This document shows, one piece after another, positions 17,383 through 45,165 of a stretch of 64,000 nucleotides of DNA; position 1 is the stretch's first letter; every line of letters begins with the position of its first letter. The stretch lies in NCBI GenBank assembly GCA_018268355.1, contig JAFDWR010000001.1, positions 955,858 to 1,019,857 on the forward strand, read 5' to 3'. Made by a program: the position numbers and the translations under genes. The DNA is from Armatimonadota bacterium (GTDB taxonomy: Bacteria; Armatimonadota; Fimbriimonadia; Fimbriimonadales; Fimbriimonadaceae). The notes below the pieces were generated by a model that was given only the letters and a program-made list of their open reading frames with translations, ran no database searches and was not told where the DNA came from.

Positions 17383-17570
17383 ACGCCGCGCCCGCCCGAG
17401 CTGTCCCCGAGTTGGTCCGATGAGAAATGGCGTGCTTGGGGGCAGGAACGCCGCGCCCGCCCGAGCTGTCCCCGAGTTGGTCCGATGAGAAAAGGCGTGC
17501 TATGGGGCAATTACCTCGCGCCCTCCCGAGCCACTCCCTCACCTCGCTGCGCTCGGCTCCGCCCGGGCGC
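17383..17570. repeat. 65-bp tandem repeat, two full units plus a degenerate third
   Basis: Unit 1 (17383-17447) and unit 2 (17448-17512) share GCCGCGCCCGCCCGAG, CTGTCCCCGAGTTGG and TCCGATGAGAAA in the same register, with few changes. A third copy begins at 17513 and runs into hairpin repeat A after about 20 bases. No spacer structure, so this is not a CRISPR array. It fills the 433-base gap between the ABC operon and the small membrane genes, where no credible ORF is seen. Confidence 0.85.
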
Positions 17571-17571
17571 G
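17517..17571 (-). repeat. Hairpin repeat copy A
   Basis: Minus-strand copy of the dispersed repeat: arms CGCGCCC and GGGCGCG enclose the common core, read as CGGGCGGAGCCGAGCGCAGC and then GAGGGAGTGGCTCGGG. See the repeat-family finding. Confidence 0.75.
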
Positions 17572-17646
17572 TGGCCGAACCTCCGCCATCTCCGGGAGTT
17601 CAATTTCGCAGCAGAGTCAACACGGAATCGTTGGTCGGTGCGGCCG

Positions 17647-17703
17647 CCCTGCCTCCGGGCGGAGGAGCGCAGCGACGAGGGTTTGGCCCGGGCGGAGGCA
17701 GGG
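17647..17703 (+). repeat. Hairpin repeat copy B
   Basis: Arms CCCTGCCTCCG and CGGAGGCAGGG pair perfectly over 11 bases; the core contains GGCGGAGGAGCGCAGCGACG and AGGGTTTGGCCCGGGCGG. This copy is identical to copy C over its full length, about 1 kb away. Confidence 0.85.
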
Positions 17704-17759
17704 GGACGCAAAAAGTCAATTCAAACCCTCGCCCTTCGTGCATGGTCGATCACTGGAGG

Positions 17760-18083
17760 TTACGGGTAAGCTGGCGCGGACGTTGACTCAAGCGTCGGCG
17801 TTGGCGAAGTGGGCTCGGGCTCCGGCGTAAAAATCGACATGCCCAACCAGAAGACGCACAGAAGGACCAGGTTGACGATCGCGAAAAGATATTGCTTCCT
17901 TCGGCACCAGACGAAGATTAATGCTAAATAGAGGAACACGAAAGGAGAGCCCACGAAAGCAAAAGAGACCATTGCTCCGTCGTCCTCACTAACCACGCAC
18001 CCTAACGGACAGCACCAGATGAGCACGTTGAGGAACAGGTACCAAACGTCGGCATCCTGCAGGCGTTGGGTGTACCTTTTCAC
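17760..18083 (-). CDS. Small membrane protein, Cys-rich (107 aa), unknown
   Basis: Unrecognised protein with three or four hydrophobic segments, including VWYLFLNVLIWCCPLGCVV, VGSPFVFLYLALIFVW and LFAIVNLVLLCVFWLGMSIF, and a short Pro/Thr/Ser-rich tail. A longer open frame exists upstream, but the GTG at 18083 is chosen: GGAGGG lies seven bases before it and it overlaps the preceding stop as GTGA, giving coupled translation with the 145-residue gene. Together with that gene it sits between identical hairpin repeats B and C, a small cassette of unknown role. Confidence 0.65.
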   Translation of the reverse strand: MKRYTQRLQDADVWYLFLNVLIWCCPLGCVVSEDDGAMVSFAFVGSPFVFLYLALIFVWCRRKQYLFAIVNLVLLCVFWLGMSIFTPEPEPTSPTPTLESTSAPAYP

Positions 18084-18517
18084 GCTGGATCCCTCCGCCT
18101 CGACTTCGCCAGAACAAGGGCCAGGTAGGCGGCCGGGACGAGGGCAATTAGGACATAGATTGCAACAATTGTGACCTGCGAGAGCGCTAGCGTTGAGAAA
18201 AAGAGCATCCTGAGAACCAACACAACCCATCCGCCAGAGATGGCGTAGCAGGCCGCTCGCTGGAGCCTTCGCTCCTCACCCGGCAGCACGTCGTCGACGG
18301 TCGCCAGATTCAGCACTCCAAACAGCGTGAACGGGACCACGACGAGCAAGTACCCGACGACAAGCGATGAGCTGATCGCGTTTAAGACCGTCAGCACCCA
18401 GGCATTCACCAAATCCACCTTCATGAAACCGACGAACCCCAAGGTGAGGAGGAACCAGAGCACGGCCAATGCCCTGGACCGCTTTCTGAGCCATCGGATC
18501 TGCTTTTCAATCGCCAT
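18080..18517 (-). CDS. Small membrane protein with four predicted spans (145 aa), unknown
   Basis: Unrecognised inner-membrane protein. A basic N-terminus (EKQIRWLRKRSRALAVLW) leads into four hydrophobic segments around residues 15-35, 45-70, 88-108 and 115-135. A charged stretch DDVLPGEERRLQRAA lies between spans two and three. Start ATG 18517 has GGGAGG nearby and a TAGAAT hexamer 18 bases upstream. Coupled to the next gene by a GTGA overlap. No similarity could be named; the pair may form a two-component membrane complex. Confidence 0.65.
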   Translation of the reverse strand: MAIEKQIRWLRKRSRALAVLWFLLTLGFVGFMKVDLVNAWVLTVLNAISSSLVVGYLLVVVPFTLFGVLNLATVDDVLPGEERRLQRAACYAISGGWVVLVLRMLFFSTLALSQVTIVAIYVLIALVPAAYLALVLAKSRRRDPA

Positions 18518-18650
18518 TCGACGCCTCCCTGCTGGATTCTAAACCGTTGCCCTCGTCCGCCGGCCATGCACCTCTGACCAGTTTGCCCCCTTTGGGCTTT
18601 CCATGCAAAGAGCCGTCCGAGGTCGCCGGTATGTCATGCCCGGCGAGCGC

Positions 18651-18711
18651 CCCCCTGCCTCCGGGCGGAGGAGCGCAGCGACGAGGGTTTGGCCCGGGCG
18701 GAGGCAGGGGG
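18651..18711 (+). repeat. Hairpin repeat copy C
   Basis: Arms CCCCCTGCCTCCG and CGGAGGCAGGGGG pair over 13 bases. Core identical to copy B. It lies immediately upstream of the integrase remnant and may mark the point where the rest of that gene was lost. Confidence 0.85.
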
Positions 18712-18720
18712 CCTGCTTAA

Positions 18721-18900
18721 ACCGAGAACCAGTCGCTGACTCACCCTCCGGGGTTCGAAGCAGGCGTGGATATTCGGACGGCTGCCGAGGTGATGGGGCA
18801 TTCGCCGCGAATGCTGACGGAGATCTACGCTCGGAGTGGTCGAGAGCGGAAGAAGGCTGCAGGGGCCAAACTGAAGACCACCCGCCAGGGCGAAATGTAG
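18721..18900 (+). pseudogene. Tyrosine recombinase (integrase) C-terminal remnant
   Basis: An open stretch from just after a TAA (18718-18720) to TAG 18898-18900 encodes about 59 residues, of which FEAGVDIRTAAEVMGHSPRM then LTEIYARSGRERKKA match the end of phage-type integrases: the second catalytic His box (LGHss-like, here MGHSP) and the catalytic Tyr (TEIYARS). The upstream R-box, Lys and HxLRHT region are missing, and there is no start codon, so this is a fragment. It ends 18 bases from the 3' end of tRNA-Ala, the classic integration position. Confidence 0.72.
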
Positions 18901-38543: not shown

Positions 38544-41015
38544 GTGTTAACACGAGCCCTTATCTCACTCCTAGGGCCGTCGATGGCTCTCAACCTCGAC
38601 CCAGTTGATCCTCTTCGCCAGGAGGGCTATATCCGCCCGCCAAAGGAGATTGAGGAGGCGGTTCTTGCTCCCTGGACCAAGAATGTCTCGGTTGGAAACA
38701 TCAGCCCCGACGGCACTAAGTTCATCATCCAAGAGCGCGAGTCCCTCGTCCCGATTGAGGCGATGGGCAAGCCCTATGTCAACCTCGCGGGCATCCAGAT
38801 CGACATCAAGGCGCACCGTGCGCGGTCGCTGACCACTCGCTTCTCGACCGGCCTGATCATCGCGCCCGTTGGTCCCGGAACGAGGCTCGGCGTGAAGCTG
38901 CCAAAGGGTGTGCGGGTTTCCTCGCCGACCTGGACGCCGAAGGGCGATGGCATCATCTTTATGGCCCACTTCGACGACAAGTCGCTCCTCTATTGGGCCG
39001 ATCCGAAGACGGGCAACTGTCGCCCGGTGACGAGCCGTCCGCTCATGCCGACGCTGGAGACCGGGTTCTCGTGGCTCGCTGACGGTGAGCGCGTGGTCCT
39101 CACGCTCCGACCGAGCAAGGCGACCCCGCCCGCGCTGCCGAACGTGGCCGACACGCCTGAGGTCCGCGTCAGCGACAGCAAGCCGAACCGGATTCGCACC
39201 TTCCCCAGCCTGCTTTCGAGCCCAAGCGACTCGAAGCTGCTCGACTATTACGCCACCACCCAGCTCGCGATTGTGAGCCTGAACGGCAAGGTCCAAGAAA
39301 TCGGCGCTCCTGCGCGGTGGGACGCGGTTTCCGCGGCGGGCGACGGTAAGTCGTTCCGCGTGACCCGGCTTGAGCAGCCTTGGAGCTACCTCGTTCCCGC
39401 TTCCAACTTCCCTAACGTCGATATCCTCATCGATGCGGACGGCAAGCAGCTCGCCGAGATTGGCAAGAACCCGCTCCGCCTTGGCGACGATCCGCCTGCC
39501 CCGACGCCAGGTCCGGGTGCGGGTCGGTTCCGACCGGGCGGCGCGAATGCGGGGCCTGATGCTCCGGTGGACACCAGCAAGCGCAGCCTCGCCTGGCGCG
39601 GCGGCGAACTCACGTTCTATCAAGTGGGTCCCGAGATCAAGGGCGCGGACGGCAAGACGACCCGCAAGGACCGCTATTGCCGCTGGAAGGCTCCTTATGG
39701 CGATAAGGACGTCGAGACGATCTGGGAGACCGACGGACGCATTTCGAGCGTCACATATGGCCCGAATGCGCAGTGGCTCTTTGTTGCGGGCACGTTCGAC
39801 AGCAAGAACAAGACGATCCTTGTCGACCTTGCCAACGGTGGAAAGTCGACCGACGTTCTCACCCCCGGCATGACCGACCCCGGTCAGCTGGTCACGAAGG
39901 CCGACCCTTCGGGTGGCGTGAACATCCGCGTTTCCAAGGACATGAAGTTCGTGTACCTCTCGGGTACGAAGCGTGGCGCGGACCGTGAGGCCCCCAAGAA
40001 CTGGATCGACAAGATGGAGCTTGGCAGCGGCAAGCGCGAGCGCCTCTTTGAAGGTGGCGGCGTGCAGGCCGAGTCGCCGACCCTTATTGACGACGAGGGC
40101 ACGATGATCCTTGTCCAGCGACAGTCGGCGAGCACGGTGCCCCAGACGTTCTTGCGCAAGGCGGGATCGCCCGAGTACCAGATCACCGCGAACCAGGACT
40201 ACCTACCCGACCTCACTCAGGCTCGGCGCGAGCGGATTCAAATCACGCGCGTGGATGGCATCAAGTTCTGGGCGACGGTCACCCTTCCGCGCGATTATAA
40301 GGGCGGAAAGATGCCGGCGTTCTTCTGGTTCTATCCGAACGAGTATGACGATCAGGCCGCCTATAACCGGTCGATCGCCCTCGCCAACGCGCCGCGGACG
40401 ACCTTCCAGACCGTGACCTCGCAGAACAAGGTGATCCTTCTTCGCGCGGGATATGCGGTGGTGGAGCCGGATTGTCCGATCATCGGCCCGATCAGCAAGG
40501 TGAACGACACCTACGTTCCCCAGCTGCGAAACAACCTTGCGGCGACGATTGATGCCCTCGACAAGGCGGGCTACATCGACCGCGAACGACTCGGCATTGG
40601 CGGTCACAGCTACGGTGCGTTTAGCACCCTGAACGCGCTCGTCCACACCCCCTTCTTCAAGGCGGGCATCGCGGGCGACGGCTGCTACCTGCGACCTCTG
40701 ACTCCGTTTGGATTCCAGAGCGAGCAGCGCCAGCTTTGGGAAGGCCGCGAGGTCTACCTGAACATGTCGCCGTTGCTGTATGCCGACCAGATCAACGCCG
40801 CCGTCCTGCTTTATCACGGGCAAGACGACCAGAACGTGGGCACCGCACCGATCAACTCGATCCGGATGTTCAACGCGCTGGAGGCGCTGGGCAAGACCTC
40901 GGCGTTCTACATGTATCCGTATGAGGACCACGGCCAGGCCGCCAAGGAGACGATCCTTGACCAGTGGGCCCGGTTTGTGGCGTTCCTCGACAAGTATGTG
41001 AAGGGCGCGAAGTAA
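38544..41015 (+). CDS. S9-family (prolyl oligopeptidase-like) serine peptidase, secreted
   Basis: 823 residues. A weak export signal (LTRALISLLGPSMALNL) precedes a beta-propeller-like region (about 50-560) and an alpha/beta-hydrolase domain (about 570-823). The triad is visible: Ser689 in GIGGHSYGAFST (G-x-S-x-G), Asp761 in LYHGQDDQNVG, His796 in YPYEDHGQAAK. A Pro/Gly-rich insert near residue 320 is unusual. It probably releases short peptides. GTG 38544 is chosen because TAAGGT stands exactly six bases before it and the frame then includes the signal. A strong terminator follows. Confidence 0.9.
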   Translation: MLTRALISLLGPSMALNLDPVDPLRQEGYIRPPKEIEEAVLAPWTKNVSVGNISPDGTKFIIQERESLVPIEAMGKPYVNLAGIQIDIKAHRARSLTTRFSTGLIIAPVGPGTRLGVKLPKGVRVSSPTWTPKGDGIIFMAHFDDKSLLYWADPKTGNCRPVTSRPLMPTLETGFSWLADGERVVLTLRPSKATPPALPNVADTPEVRVSDSKPNRIRTFPSLLSSPSDSKLLDYYATTQLAIVSLNGKVQEIGAPARWDAVSAAGDGKSFRVTRLEQPWSYLVPASNFPNVDILIDADGKQLAEIGKNPLRLGDDPPAPTPGPGAGRFRPGGANAGPDAPVDTSKRSLAWRGGELTFYQVGPEIKGADGKTTRKDRYCRWKAPYGDKDVETIWETDGRISSVTYGPNAQWLFVAGTFDSKNKTILVDLANGGKSTDVLTPGMTDPGQLVTKADPSGGVNIRVSKDMKFVYLSGTKRGADREAPKNWIDKMELGSGKRERLFEGGGVQAESPTLIDDEGTMILVQRQSASTVPQTFLRKAGSPEYQITANQDYLPDLTQARRERIQITRVDGIKFWATVTLPRDYKGGKMPAFFWFYPNEYDDQAAYNRSIALANAPRTTFQTVTSQNKVILLRAGYAVVEPDCPIIGPISKVNDTYVPQLRNNLAATIDALDKAGYIDRERLGIGGHSYGAFSTLNALVHTPFFKAGIAGDGCYLRPLTPFGFQSEQRQLWEGREVYLNMSPLLYADQINAAVLLYHGQDDQNVGTAPINSIRMFNALEALGKTSAFYMYPYEDHGQAAKETILDQWARFVAFLDKYVKGAK

Positions 41016-41068: not shown

Positions 41069-41097
41069 GGGTTTTGGGGGTGGAGGGCAGATGACTT

Positions 41098-41160
41098 GTC
41101 GCCGACCTTGCCCGGGGCCTCTCCCTCGTCGCCTTCGGCTCCTCCGCCCCGGTCGGCGAC
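41098..41160 (-). repeat. Hairpin repeat copy D (inverted)
   Basis: Minus-strand copy with arms GTCGCCGACC/GGTCGGCGAC, core GGGGCGGAGGAGCCGAAGGC then GACGAGGGA. The core is identical over 29 bases to copy F on the other side of the nuclease-like gene, in opposite orientation. Confidence 0.8.
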
Positions 41161-41182
41161 TTGGGCATCGCCTGCCGGACCA

Positions 41183-41235
41183 GCCGCCCGAGGCGGGCGA
41201 GCGAAGCGAGCGGGTGTGGCCTCGGGGAGGGCGGC
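41183..41235 (+). repeat. Hairpin repeat copy E
   Basis: Arms GCCGCCC/GGGCGGC; the core is more divergent (GCGAGCGAAGCGAGCGGG, then GTGTGGCCTCGGGG). It is followed at 41241-41256 by GGCCTATACTGACTCA, which recurs after copy F. Confidence 0.7.
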
Positions 41236-41268
41236 GACAAGGCCTATACTGACTCAGAGGAAGAGCAA

Positions 41269-41799
41269 ATGGACAAGCTGTTGCAACTTGCCGAACTGAT
41301 ACACGAGCGCAACTTGTTGGAGGAGCGCATCTCGGAAATCACCAGCCGACCAGCCTCGATAGGGCATCTCGGCGAGTTCATCGCAAGCTCAATCTTCGGA
41401 GTGCGGCTCGCTGAAAACGCGAACCACAAGAGTATTGACGGCTGGTTCGAGAGCGGGCCGCTTCAAGGCCGTTCCGTGAACATCAAGTGGTATGCCAAGC
41501 ACGAAGGCATTTTGGACATGTGTGTGGATTCAGGACCAGACTTCTATCTTGTTCTGGCCGGTCCGCGCCACCCTGCAACTAGAGCAGTTGGCCCCCGTCC
41601 TTGGCTTATTGAGCACGTCTTTCTGATGGAAGACTCGGCTCTGCGTGGGCTGCTTTCTTCAAAGATTGGCATCGCGACCAGCGTTCGACGGGATATCTGG
41701 ACGCGATGCGAGATCTTTCCGAACCCGAATCCCGAACTTTGCGAGCTCTCGGCGTCACAGGTGAGTGCGCTGAATCTCTTCGGAGTGCGTCGCCCTTAG
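41269..41799 (+). CDS. DUF6998-like protein, probable PD-(D/E)xK nuclease fold (176 aa)
   Basis: Cytoplasmic protein opening with LAELIHERNLLEERI and RPASIGHLGEFIAS. Glu36 (HLGEF), Asp57 (KSIDGWF) and Lys73 (VNIKWYAK) have the order and spacing of a PD-(D/E)xK active site, with N-x-K in place of E-x-K. LVLAGPRHP and IGIATSVRRDIWTRCEIFP are the conserved ends of the DUF6998 family as I recall it. Codon use is less GC-biased than neighbours. ATG 41269 is preferred to a frame running into repeats. TATACT in the flanking repeat (41246-41251) may be its -10. It sits between repeat pairs D/E and F. Confidence 0.7.
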   Translation: MDKLLQLAELIHERNLLEERISEITSRPASIGHLGEFIASSIFGVRLAENANHKSIDGWFESGPLQGRSVNIKWYAKHEGILDMCVDSGPDFYLVLAGPRHPATRAVGPRPWLIEHVFLMEDSALRGLLSSKIGIATSVRRDIWTRCEIFPNPNPELCELSASQVSALNLFGVRRP

Positions 41800-41841
41800 C
41801 ATCGTGCCTTCAGGCCCTCATCTGACAGCTGATATGGCCCG

Positions 41842-41907
41842 GGTCGCCGCCCGGGGGCGGAGGAGCCGAAGGCGACGAGGGATTGGCCTCGGGCGCGGGC
41901 GGCGACC
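41842..41907 (+). repeat. Hairpin repeat copy F
   Basis: Arms GGTCGCCGCCCG/CGGGCGGCGACC pair over 12 bases; core with GGGGCGGAGGAGCCGAAGGC and GACGAGGGATTGGCCTCGGG. Followed at 41910-41925 by GGCCTATACTGACTCA, the same 16 bases found after copy E. A partial right arm recurs at about 41951-41961. Confidence 0.85.
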
Positions 41908-42080
41908 CTGGCCTATACTGACTCAAATCACGCACCGCCCAGGGACAGGCGCGGGCGGCGACAATCCCCAAAAATCCAAGTCATCAACCGTTCATGTTGC
42001 GTTCACGGGAACCCAGAGAGAGGGGGCGTAGAACCAAAAGCAAGGAACTCCCAACCAACCGGAGTCCAGGAACAAAACTC

Positions 42081-42641
42081 ATGATCACCACCACTCTCTC
42101 GTTCGTTCTCGCTACCCTGACGACCGCTGGTCCGCAGGACGCCATGATGTCGCCCAAGAACCCGATGGTCGGCGGCGCCCCGATGATGGAAATGAAGAAC
42201 ATCGTCGAGAACGCAGTCAACTCGCCCGACCACACAACCCTCGTCGCCGCGGTCAAGGCCGCGGGACTCGTCGACGCCTTGATGGGCAAGGGCCCCTTCA
42301 CCGTCTTCGCACCGACGAACGCCGCCTTCTCGATGCTTCCCGCGGGGACGGTCGACAAGCTCCTCATGGACGACATGAAGCCGACCCTCACCAAGATCCT
42401 CACCTACCACGTCGTTCCCGGAACGATGACCTACGACTCGATCTCGAAGGCGATCAAGAAGGGCAACGGCAGCGCGAAGCTGAAGACCCTCAGCGGCGGA
42501 TGGCTCTGGGCGAGCTGGAACGGCCCGCGCAACATCGTCCTGAAGGACGAAATGGGCGGCTGGGCGAACATCTCGACCTACGACGTGATGCAGAAGAACG
42601 GCGTGATCCACGTCATCGACCGCGTCCTGATGCCGAAGTAA
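42081..42641 (+). CDS. Secreted fasciclin (FAS1) domain protein
   Basis: 186 residues. A short signal peptide (ITTTLSFVLATLTTAG) and a Met-rich linker (DAMMSPKNPMVGGAPMMEMK) precede one FAS1 domain: NIVENAVNSPDHTTLVAAVK, the H1 motif GPFTVFAPTNAAFSMLP, YHVVPGTMTYDSI, and the H2 end KNGVIHVIDRVLMPK. Such exported domains mediate adhesion or matrix contacts. ATG 42081 opens the signal; upstream frame is rejected. A long hairpin terminator follows. Confidence 0.93.
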   Translation: MITTTLSFVLATLTTAGPQDAMMSPKNPMVGGAPMMEMKNIVENAVNSPDHTTLVAAVKAAGLVDALMGKGPFTVFAPTNAAFSMLPAGTVDKLLMDDMKPTLTKILTYHVVPGTMTYDSISKAIKKGNGSAKLKTLSGGWLWASWNGPRNIVLKDEMGGWANISTYDVMQKNGVIHVIDRVLMPK

Positions 42642-42691: not shown

Positions 42692-42930
42692 CTCACCCTC
42701 CAGGCATGGTAAATCTATCGTCCACCAAACGAGTCATAGATTAACTTGGCGAGGACTGGAGAAAAATAACAACTCAGCCGAAAGAGATAACCCGTACCAA
42801 CGAACGCCATGAATCCTCACAATCACCGTAGACCTCAGGGCTGTTTCTCCTCGCACCTGACTAAATCATACCTGCGACTAAGTTCGAATGCGTTCAACAT
42901 GTAACGATCTCAAAAGGTAGGCGGTTCCAG

Positions 42931-44781
42931 CTAGGGCGATCCATCGACATCATATGATGAATCATAGTCTTGGATTTCGTATCGTCGAGCAGTGGCTTCT
43001 ATGCGATCAAGCTCCTGGCGAACCTCTTCATCAGTAGCATACACAGACTCCTGACAATTATCACACCAATAAATAGCTCCGTCGTTCGATGAAAAAAGCT
43101 TGCAAGAACTGCCGCAAGCCGAACAGGGCTTCCCCGGCTCTTCGGTGTCTCCAAGGTACTCAATTGACATATCCAAGAAGTCAGTGGGACGCACCACAAA
43201 TTTCTCGCTCTGAACTTCGTCTACAATATCCTGTGGCCAAAGTCTTGTAATGAGATTCTTCGTACACAAATCCATCGAAAGCCTTACTCGGGCAATTCTT
43301 AACATCATCCTAGGTATTGAAGCAAGGCATGCGCGCTCCGCGAGTAGTCCGAGGTCCTCAGAGTGGAGGATTATCGGATTGCTAACCTTAAAGGACCTCC
43401 CGTCAAAGCGTTGAAAAAGCTCCTTAGCTCGTTGAGTGGCGAATTCATAGCACGGAGCCCAAGTCATTATGTCGTCCATCATGACTACACACGGAACTAC
43501 GTATTTTACACCTTTGAGTCGAAACTCCTCTTTCCTAGCGGCGATAAATTCCAAGTGATTGGCACACTGAATGAAGCCTTGGGGATCACCGTCACTCCCT
43601 ACTATGTATTTTCTGTTTATCTCATCAGCCAATACTTGCGGATCAGTTGTATAGATAGCAGAGTATCCCATAGGGGCAGATTTGAACTCGAAAACGACAG
43701 CAACCTCGCCTTCAACATAGAACCCGTCCGCTGTCTCACCAAGGAGCGATTTTGGAGCCATCCAAGCGTTTTGTCGCCCTCGCGCACGACACGTTGCTGT
43801 CAGTATTGTGTTGCAATACTCCTCAAACACCCCTCCCATTTCGCCCGTGAAAGCCCCAATTCTCTTCGCCTGAGCCGTGGCGTTGGTGAGGTTCCATAGT
43901 GTCCGCGCTGCTTTGGCCGCGAGGTAATCGAGATCTAGGCAAATCACCACACCCTGCCAATAGGCAAGGGGCCGATTTGCAATCATGGAAAGGTTAGCAA
44001 ATTGTTCTTCTGAACTTAGGTGTGACTCAGACAGGTCCAGGACCATGTTTTCTAGAATAAAGTCTCCAACGGCCTTTGGTGCGCGAACTATGCCCATCAG
44101 ATACGAGAATCCAATCCCTGTTCCTACGTTGGATTCAACCAATCTTGGACCGTGGTTCCTGAAATGAAGCCAGAGGGCATTCAGGGCTGTTTGCAATTGA
44201 ACATGTGTGAACCCGTACCGCTCGTAGAACACTTCGTGCAGGGAGAGTCGGTCCATGAGGCGAGTAAGGAGATATCCTTTGACCGAGAAGTCTTCCAGGC
44301 TTCGAGTGGACATTCGATAGCCTCGTCTCATCGATATCTCAAGGTTCGGCAACCACAAGGGATCAGAACTTTTGAGCTCGCGCACGGATGGCGACAGCGC
44401 CTGTTCGGAGTGTAATAAGAGTGTGCCGATATTGTGTCCGACTTGATCATCCTCAAGCACTGAATTGGTTCCGCTACAACCATGCGTCAAGATCAGCCAA
44501 ATCACCAAGCGAAAGTGGTGGGGTGTAAATATTGTCAGGCGCAGCTGAGTTGGATTGGTTACGGGCGATCCTGCAGTGTAATGTGAGATGAGAGGCGTAA
44601 AGCATCGAAGCTGAAAGTCTTCATCATCTGCCCCGCCGGTTTCTAGTGCGACGTTCATTCTGGCCAGAAAAGGCAGCACAGATATTCGTGAAATGTTTTG
44701 CGCAATTTCGGTCAGGTCCGAAGCTGACAGTTGGGCGATCCCTAGCAACTCTGGCGACAGATAGACCGAGGCGTTCTGCAT
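42931..44781 (-). CDS. Low-GC 616-aa protein with PD-(D/E)xK-like centre and C-terminal zinc ribbon
   Basis: Unrecognised cytoplasmic protein. A helical N-terminal region (1-300) is followed by GGVFEEYCNTIL (Glu320/321), TADGFYVEGEVAVVFEFKSA with Asp352 and E365-x-K367, the pattern of a PD-(D/E)xK nuclease core. The C-terminus has a zinc ribbon CSACGSSC (553-560) and CDNC (573-576), then an acidic tail DYDSSYDVDGSP. Base composition is near 50% GC, clearly below its neighbours, and it lies next to tRNA-Asn, so recent transfer is likely. No partner methylase, helicase or reverse transcriptase is adjacent. A stand-alone defence nuclease is possible; function is not proven. Confidence 0.72.
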   Translation of the reverse strand: MQNASVYLSPELLGIAQLSASDLTEIAQNISRISVLPFLARMNVALETGGADDEDFQLRCFTPLISHYTAGSPVTNPTQLRLTIFTPHHFRLVIWLILTHGCSGTNSVLEDDQVGHNIGTLLLHSEQALSPSVRELKSSDPLWLPNLEISMRRGYRMSTRSLEDFSVKGYLLTRLMDRLSLHEVFYERYGFTHVQLQTALNALWLHFRNHGPRLVESNVGTGIGFSYLMGIVRAPKAVGDFILENMVLDLSESHLSSEEQFANLSMIANRPLAYWQGVVICLDLDYLAAKAARTLWNLTNATAQAKRIGAFTGEMGGVFEEYCNTILTATCRARGRQNAWMAPKSLLGETADGFYVEGEVAVVFEFKSAPMGYSAIYTTDPQVLADEINRKYIVGSDGDPQGFIQCANHLEFIAARKEEFRLKGVKYVVPCVVMMDDIMTWAPCYEFATQRAKELFQRFDGRSFKVSNPIILHSEDLGLLAERACLASIPRMMLRIARVRLSMDLCTKNLITRLWPQDIVDEVQSEKFVVRPTDFLDMSIEYLGDTEEPGKPCSACGSSCKLFSSNDGAIYWCDNCQESVYATDEEVRQELDRIEATARRYEIQDYDSSYDVDGSP

Positions 44782-44974
44782 TTCTTCGATTGTGCCTCGC
44801 CAGAGGTGGCGCTCCTGTGTTGAGACCTCAAGGGTCCGATGATTCGACCCGACTTGCTTGCCTCAGGCTCCAATCTCTAACCCCCGTGTCCGAGGTACCG
44901 AGGCTCAAAATTGCAGGGCCAAGATATGCGGAGGTTTCGAATTTGCGTGCCCCAGACGGGGTTGTTTACCCCCC

Positions 44975-44998
44975 AAAAAGCCCCCTGAGGGGCGTTTT
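44975..44998 (-). terminator. Terminator of tRNA-Asn
   Basis: On the minus strand GCCCC-TCAG-GGGGC is followed by TTTTT, 14 bases after the tRNA-Asn 3' end. Good rho-independent shape. Confidence 0.85.
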
Positions 44999-45011
44999 GA
45001 ACCTGAATTCG

Positions 45012-45086
45012 TGGCTGCCGCACTAGGATTCGAACCTAGGACCCGCTGATTAACAGTCAGCTGCTCTACCGCTGAGCTATGCGGCA
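45012..45086 (-). tRNA. tRNA-Asn (anticodon GTT)
   Basis: Minus strand: acceptor TGCCGCA/TGCGGCA, anticodon stem GCTGA/TCAGC around CTGTTAA, T-arm CCTAGG-TTCGAAT, discriminator G, encoded CCA; 75 nt. The low-GC nuclease-like gene lies downstream of its 3' end. Confidence 0.96.
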
Positions 45087-45165
45087 ACGTTCTTCCGTTG
45101 ACTATACCTATCGGACGATTCCAATGCAAGCCCCAGGCCCCTGGGGCCCAGTTTCGACCACGAAC

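What the first reader, a model, noticed from the sequence alone, without database searches (positions are those of the whole stretch)
41098..41925. Repeat-bracketed nuclease-like cassette with a promoter element in the repeat
The 176-aa PD-(D/E)xK-like gene lies between hairpin repeats: copies D and F are inverted to each other with a 29-base identical core, and E and F are direct copies, each followed by the same 16 bases GGCCTATACTGACTCA. That sequence contains TATACT, which could drive the gene from copy E. The structure looks like a gene carried or duplicated through the repeats, and a nuclease in such a place may be a defence or mobility module.
Basis: partly seen in the sequence, partly recalled or inferred. 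Interest (0 to 1): 0.75.

Follow-up and report, generated by a model that had tools for sequence, protein, structure and literature searches.

The report
Acquired nuclease-like gene among genome-wide hairpins
A small, probably horizontally acquired nuclease-like gene happens to sit between copies of a hairpin repeat that is scattered at 60 or more places in this genome, so the repeats are ordinary REP-like sequences and not evidence of a mobile gene cassette.

Summary
The sequence observation is correct. D (41098-41160, inverted), E (about 41183-41238) and F (41843-41906) are hairpins. D and F share a 29-nt core. E and F are each followed by the same 16 nt, which occur nowhere else in the genome. 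The cassette interpretation does not hold. The hairpins belong to a dispersed family with at least 61 copies in the 2.7-Mb genome, often in -/+ pairs like D-E, with compensatory changes in the outer stem. Copies also bracket ordinary genes, so bracketing does not mark cargo. The 176-aa gene is real: homologs of 50% and 41% identity exist in a Brocadiaceae MAG and one family-level relative. E36, D57 and K73 are invariant in those three, but no fold or family match confirms a nuclease. Lower GC, patchy distribution and a defence-type neighbourhood in Brocadiaceae suggest an acquired defence-type gene. TATACT is not a feature of the repeat family; TATACTGA follows the hairpin at two independent loci, so a local promoter role is plausible. 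No same-genus genome is held and synteny is lost, so the empty-site test was not possible.

The parts
41098..41160 (-). Hairpin repeat copy D (R1 hit 41088-41165, 71.8 bits)
41183..41238 (+). Hairpin repeat copy E, divergent subfamily (R1 hit 41175-41248, 47.4 bits)
41241..41256 (+). Tail GGCCTATACTGACTCA after E; TATACT at 41245-41250 is a possible -10 box ending 18 nt before the start codon
41269..41799 (+). 176-aa PD-(D/E)xK-like protein, weak match to DUF6998 (PF22522)
41843..41906 (+). Hairpin repeat copy F (R1 hit 41838-41916, 75.2 bits)
41910..41925 (+). Tail GGCCTATACTGACTCA after F; upstream of the fasciclin gene at 42081
41945..41962 (+). Extra copy of the 3' arm (ACAGGCGCGGGCGGCGAC) after F, remnant of a further repeat unit
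38544..41015 (+). Upstream neighbour: S9-type peptidase, 823 aa
42081..42641 (+). Downstream neighbour: fasciclin-domain protein

Best explanation
Two unrelated things lie next to each other. (1) D, E and F are three members of a genome-wide family of about 60-nt hairpins (REP/BIME-like), which sit between genes, often as -/+ pairs, and whose stem arms change together. They most likely act as hairpins in DNA or RNA (spacers between transcription units, transcript ends) and spread and homogenise locally by duplication and template-switch or gene-conversion events. (2) The 176-aa gene is an acquired, patchily distributed, single-gene PD-(D/E)xK-like protein, probably a defence-type endonuclease or a decayed relative, that settled in this intergenic space. 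The shared 16-nt tail comes from a local duplication of the end of one hairpin with its downstream flank; it may have given the gene a -10 box (TATACT) and a leader of about 12 nt. Shown: the repeats, copy number, covariation, homologs, absence of the repeats at the homologs. Inferred: acquisition, nuclease activity, promoter use, mode of duplication.
For: At least 61 copies by covariance model in the own genome, 11 in one other genus, few or none in 35 other genomes. Eight of 9 outer-stem pairs have changes on both sides; covariation score 0.392 against 0.114 in shuffles and at most 0.074 in slid controls. 13 pairs of copies lie under 400 nt apart against about 0.5 expected at random, 11 of them in -/+ orientation. 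Repeats bracket ordinary genes such as Fpg-type glycosylase, FHA protein, beta-lactamase-like proteins and epimerase. Gene homologs in Brocadiaceae L070 (50%) and G004 (41%) have no repeat hit. Gene found in 2 of 61 genomes of the close relatives, own genome included, and in 5 of 291 phylum genomes, 3 of them remote matches. GC about 55% against about 62% around it. L070 neighbours: Eco57I-type methylase, DUF488, DuOB, Abi_C, GmrSD.
Against: Structure model is poor (mean pLDDT 50.6), no solved-structure relative, and DUF6998 is below its cut-off, so the nuclease call rests on the motif pattern. Remote homologs in G176 and G053 do not keep K73 (by inspection). The acquisition claim rests on GC and distribution only. 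The 16-nt duplication around exactly this gene remains compatible with an insertion event.
Confidence: 0.72

Rival explanations
1. Repeat-mediated cassette: the segment between the two tails (gene plus hairpin F, 669 nt) integrated by homologous recombination at a pre-existing hairpin-tail, leaving direct repeats, and could be lost again the same way.
For: Direct copies of arm end plus 16-nt tail flank the gene and are unique in the genome; gene has lower GC and patchy distribution.
Against: Only 9+16 nt are shared and the spacer differs (2 against 3 nt); E's hairpin belongs to another subfamily; homologs lack the repeats; the segment holds no other gene that could move it; similar bracketing occurs at ordinary genes.
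Confidence: 0.15
2. Hairpin-promoter module: hairpin followed by TATACTGA is a recurrent regulatory unit that drives the gene next to it (nuclease-like gene, fasciclin gene, and the L119 gene).
For: Only 10 TATACTGA in the genome, 3 of them within 10 nt of the 3' arm of this hairpin, all pointing towards a gene; about 0.001-0.002 expected near 61 copies by my own estimate.
Against: Two of the three are copies of each other. Of the 50 copies listed, only E, F and L119 have TATACT near the arm and one has TATAAT; many others are followed by a TGCCCCATAGCACGC-type element. No -35 match.
Confidence: 0.3
3. The repeats are non-autonomous mobile elements moved by a RAYT-type transposase.
For: Dispersed and paired in inverted orientation, as REPs and BIMEs are (PMC2817692).
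Against: No Y1_Tnp (PF01797) in the own genome, 97.7% complete, while the control search found it in 5 of 14 genomes; the stem arms are not constant in sequence.
Confidence: 0.1

Closest known systems
REP/BIME palindromic repeats (GTAG- and CGTC-tagged families; PMC3733652, PMC2817692)
   Same: Short palindromes, many copies, between genes, often paired in opposite orientation; some families (CGTC) without a dedicated transposase.
   Different: Longer (about 60 nt against 20-40, stem plus inner hairpin), outer stem varies between copies with compensation, no constant GTAG or CGTC tag seen at the arm end, no RAYT found in the genome.
DUF6998 (PF22522)
   Same: Residues 31-97 match profile positions 26-83 (E 4.9e-5); the Brocadiaceae homolog matches as well (E 2e-5).
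   Different: Score below the curated cut-off; only about half the profile matched; function of the family unknown.
PD-(D/E)xK nucleases of defence islands
   Same: Helix with E36, then D57 and N71-x-K73 on predicted strands (low-confidence model); the Brocadiaceae copy sits with GmrSD, Abi_C, DUF488 and an Eco57I-type methylase.
   Different: N in place of D/E before xK; no confident fold; no PADLOC or PHROG match; no recognised partner gene in this window.

Membership tests
REP/BIME repeats | short palindrome, many dispersed copies | tested here: met
   at least 61 copies, hairpin with covariation
REP/BIME repeats | extragenic position | tested here: inconclusive
   copies lie between identifiable genes in the inspected clusters, but ORF calls were mechanical and the clusters were chosen for density
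REP/BIME repeats | paired units in opposite orientation | tested here: met
   11 of 13 close neighbours are -/+
REP/BIME repeats | GTAG or CGTC tag at one end | tested here: not met
   no such constant tag next to the arms in the 50 listed copies, by inspection
REP/BIME repeats | RAYT transposase in the genome (GTAG families) | tested here: not met
   no PF01797 match
DUF6998 | score above Pfam gathering cut-off | tested here: not met
   23.7 bits against 27
PD-(D/E)xK nuclease | conserved acidic and lysine active-site residues | tested here: inconclusive
   E36, D57, K73 invariant in three homologs, but the motif reads NxK and remote homologs lose K73
PD-(D/E)xK nuclease | restriction-endonuclease-like fold | tested here: inconclusive
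   AlphaFold2 mean pLDDT 50.6 with two sequences; no PDB sequence match
PD-(D/E)xK nuclease | nuclease activity | not testable with these tools
   needs an assay
mobile gene cassette | empty site in a relative | tested here: inconclusive
   no same-genus genome held; neighbours not syntenic in family-level relatives

The most novel reading that the evidence does not exclude
The hairpin family is an unnamed class of dispersed element whose stem is rewritten from copy to copy while staying self-complementary, with no REP transposase, and which sometimes carries a -10 box in its downstream flank so that a copy can switch on the gene next to it.
Probability: 0.15. Interest if true: 0.5.

Novelty: new member of a known kind. 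Interest (0 to 1): 0.25.

Why it matters
As a cassette it would have been a new small mobile defence unit; the tests do not support that. What remains is a REP-like family with strong stem covariation, and a small nuclease-like family that turns up in a defence-type neighbourhood in a Brocadiaceae genome. Both are useful for annotation; neither is very surprising.

Tried and rejected
Empty site through fasciclin and S9 orthologs: closest orthologs (66% and 51%) lie in different contexts. Viral, phage and plasmid origin of the gene: no match. Known RNA family at the locus: none. PADLOC, PHROGs, NCBIfam: none for the gene. RAYT transposase: none. PDB sequence search: only chance-level matches. 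Structure model too weak for a fold search, so none was run. General promoter signal from upstream hexamers in 152 kb: no clear -10 enrichment. Literature: nothing on DUF6998, and no paper that holds both 'Armatimonadetes' and 'repetitive extragenic palindromic', a guess at the lineage that was never verified.

Full report
Observation. D and F are inverted, 53 nt at 89%, with a 29-nt identical core. E and F are in the same orientation and each is followed by GGCCTATACTGACTCA, which is found nowhere else in the 2.7-Mb genome. The gene runs 41269-41799, 176 aa.

Repeats. DNA searches with D-E and with F returned about 20 dispersed matches each. Turned into one orientation and aligned, the copies share GGGCGGAG, an inner hairpin, CGAGGG, GGC and CGGGC between two outer arms. 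The arms differ between copies yet pair within each copy: 8 of 9 outer pairs have changes on both sides, covariation 0.392 against 0.114 shuffled and at most 0.074 when slid. The alignment was made by sequence, not fitted to the structure; but the copies are related, so the changes are not all independent events. A covariance model finds 61 copies in the own genome, 11 in one genus of the same family, 6 in three others and none in the remaining 32 genomes. Only part of the candidates was scored, so 61 is a lower bound. Thirteen pairs of neighbours lie closer than 400 nt, against about 0.5 expected at random, and 11 of them are -/+. D-E is one such pair.

Do repeats bracket cargo? Intervals between neighbouring copies hold ordinary genes: Fpg-type glycosylase, FHA protein, beta-lactamase-like proteins, epimerase, S41 peptidase. 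The regions inspected were chosen because copies are dense there, so this shows that such bracketing happens at ordinary genes, not how often it occurs genome-wide. Many copies are followed by a second element, TGCCCCATAGCACGC...GGGGACAGC; D and E lack it and F has at most a remnant.

Tail and promoter. Near copies share downstream flank more often than far ones (13.6% against 4.1% at score 16 or more); near copies do not share upstream flank. Part of this comes from the second element, which is a regular part of the family. The E/F tail fits a local duplication of an arm with its downstream flank. TATACTGA occurs 10 times in the genome, 3 times right behind this hairpin: E, F and a separate locus where an ATG follows within about 10 nt. 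So the promoter idea is plausible at these loci, but TATACT is absent from nearly all other copies and no -35 match exists.

Gene. Close homologs: Brocadiaceae MAG L070, 50%, and G004 in the same family, 41%. Among 291 genomes of the phylum only G004, the own genome and three remote matches score. Neither close homolog has the repeat nearby. E36, D57 and K73 are invariant in the three, while remote members in G176 and G053 change or lose K73 (by inspection). DUF6998 matches below its cut-off. The L070 copy lies between a short ORF that looks GIY-YIG-like by eye (no Pfam match) and a GmrSD protein, with Abi_C, DuOB, DUF488 and an Eco57I-type methylase upstream. This is a defence-type neighbourhood. 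In G004 it lies between an SDR-like and an aminotransferase-like gene (named by eye). GC of the gene is about 55% in a 62% context.

Limits. No same-genus genome was available, so the empty-site test stays open. The structure model was too weak to confirm the fold.

Noticed in passing
window 42700-45090: AT-richer stretch (GC 47-54% against about 62%) with a 616-aa ORF on the minus strand (42931-44781) that carries an EFK motif and a C-terminal zinc-ribbon-like part, next to a tRNA gene (45015-45086): looks like a small tRNA-side island; no significant family match.
   Followed up: partly
L106-L120, e.g. L107:7402-7476 and its 3' flank: A second conserved repeat element, TGCCCCATAGCACGC...TCGGGGACAGC, follows many copies of the hairpin, so the full repeat unit seems to be composite.
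   Followed up: partly
window 17502-18721: Three more copies of the hairpin family in the window; the copies at 17640 and 18646 have a near-identical core and stem.
   Followed up: no
L073, L074: Remote homologs of the gene lie beside a MoxR-type AAA ATPase gene (by eye) and do not keep the lysine of the putative active site.
   Followed up: no
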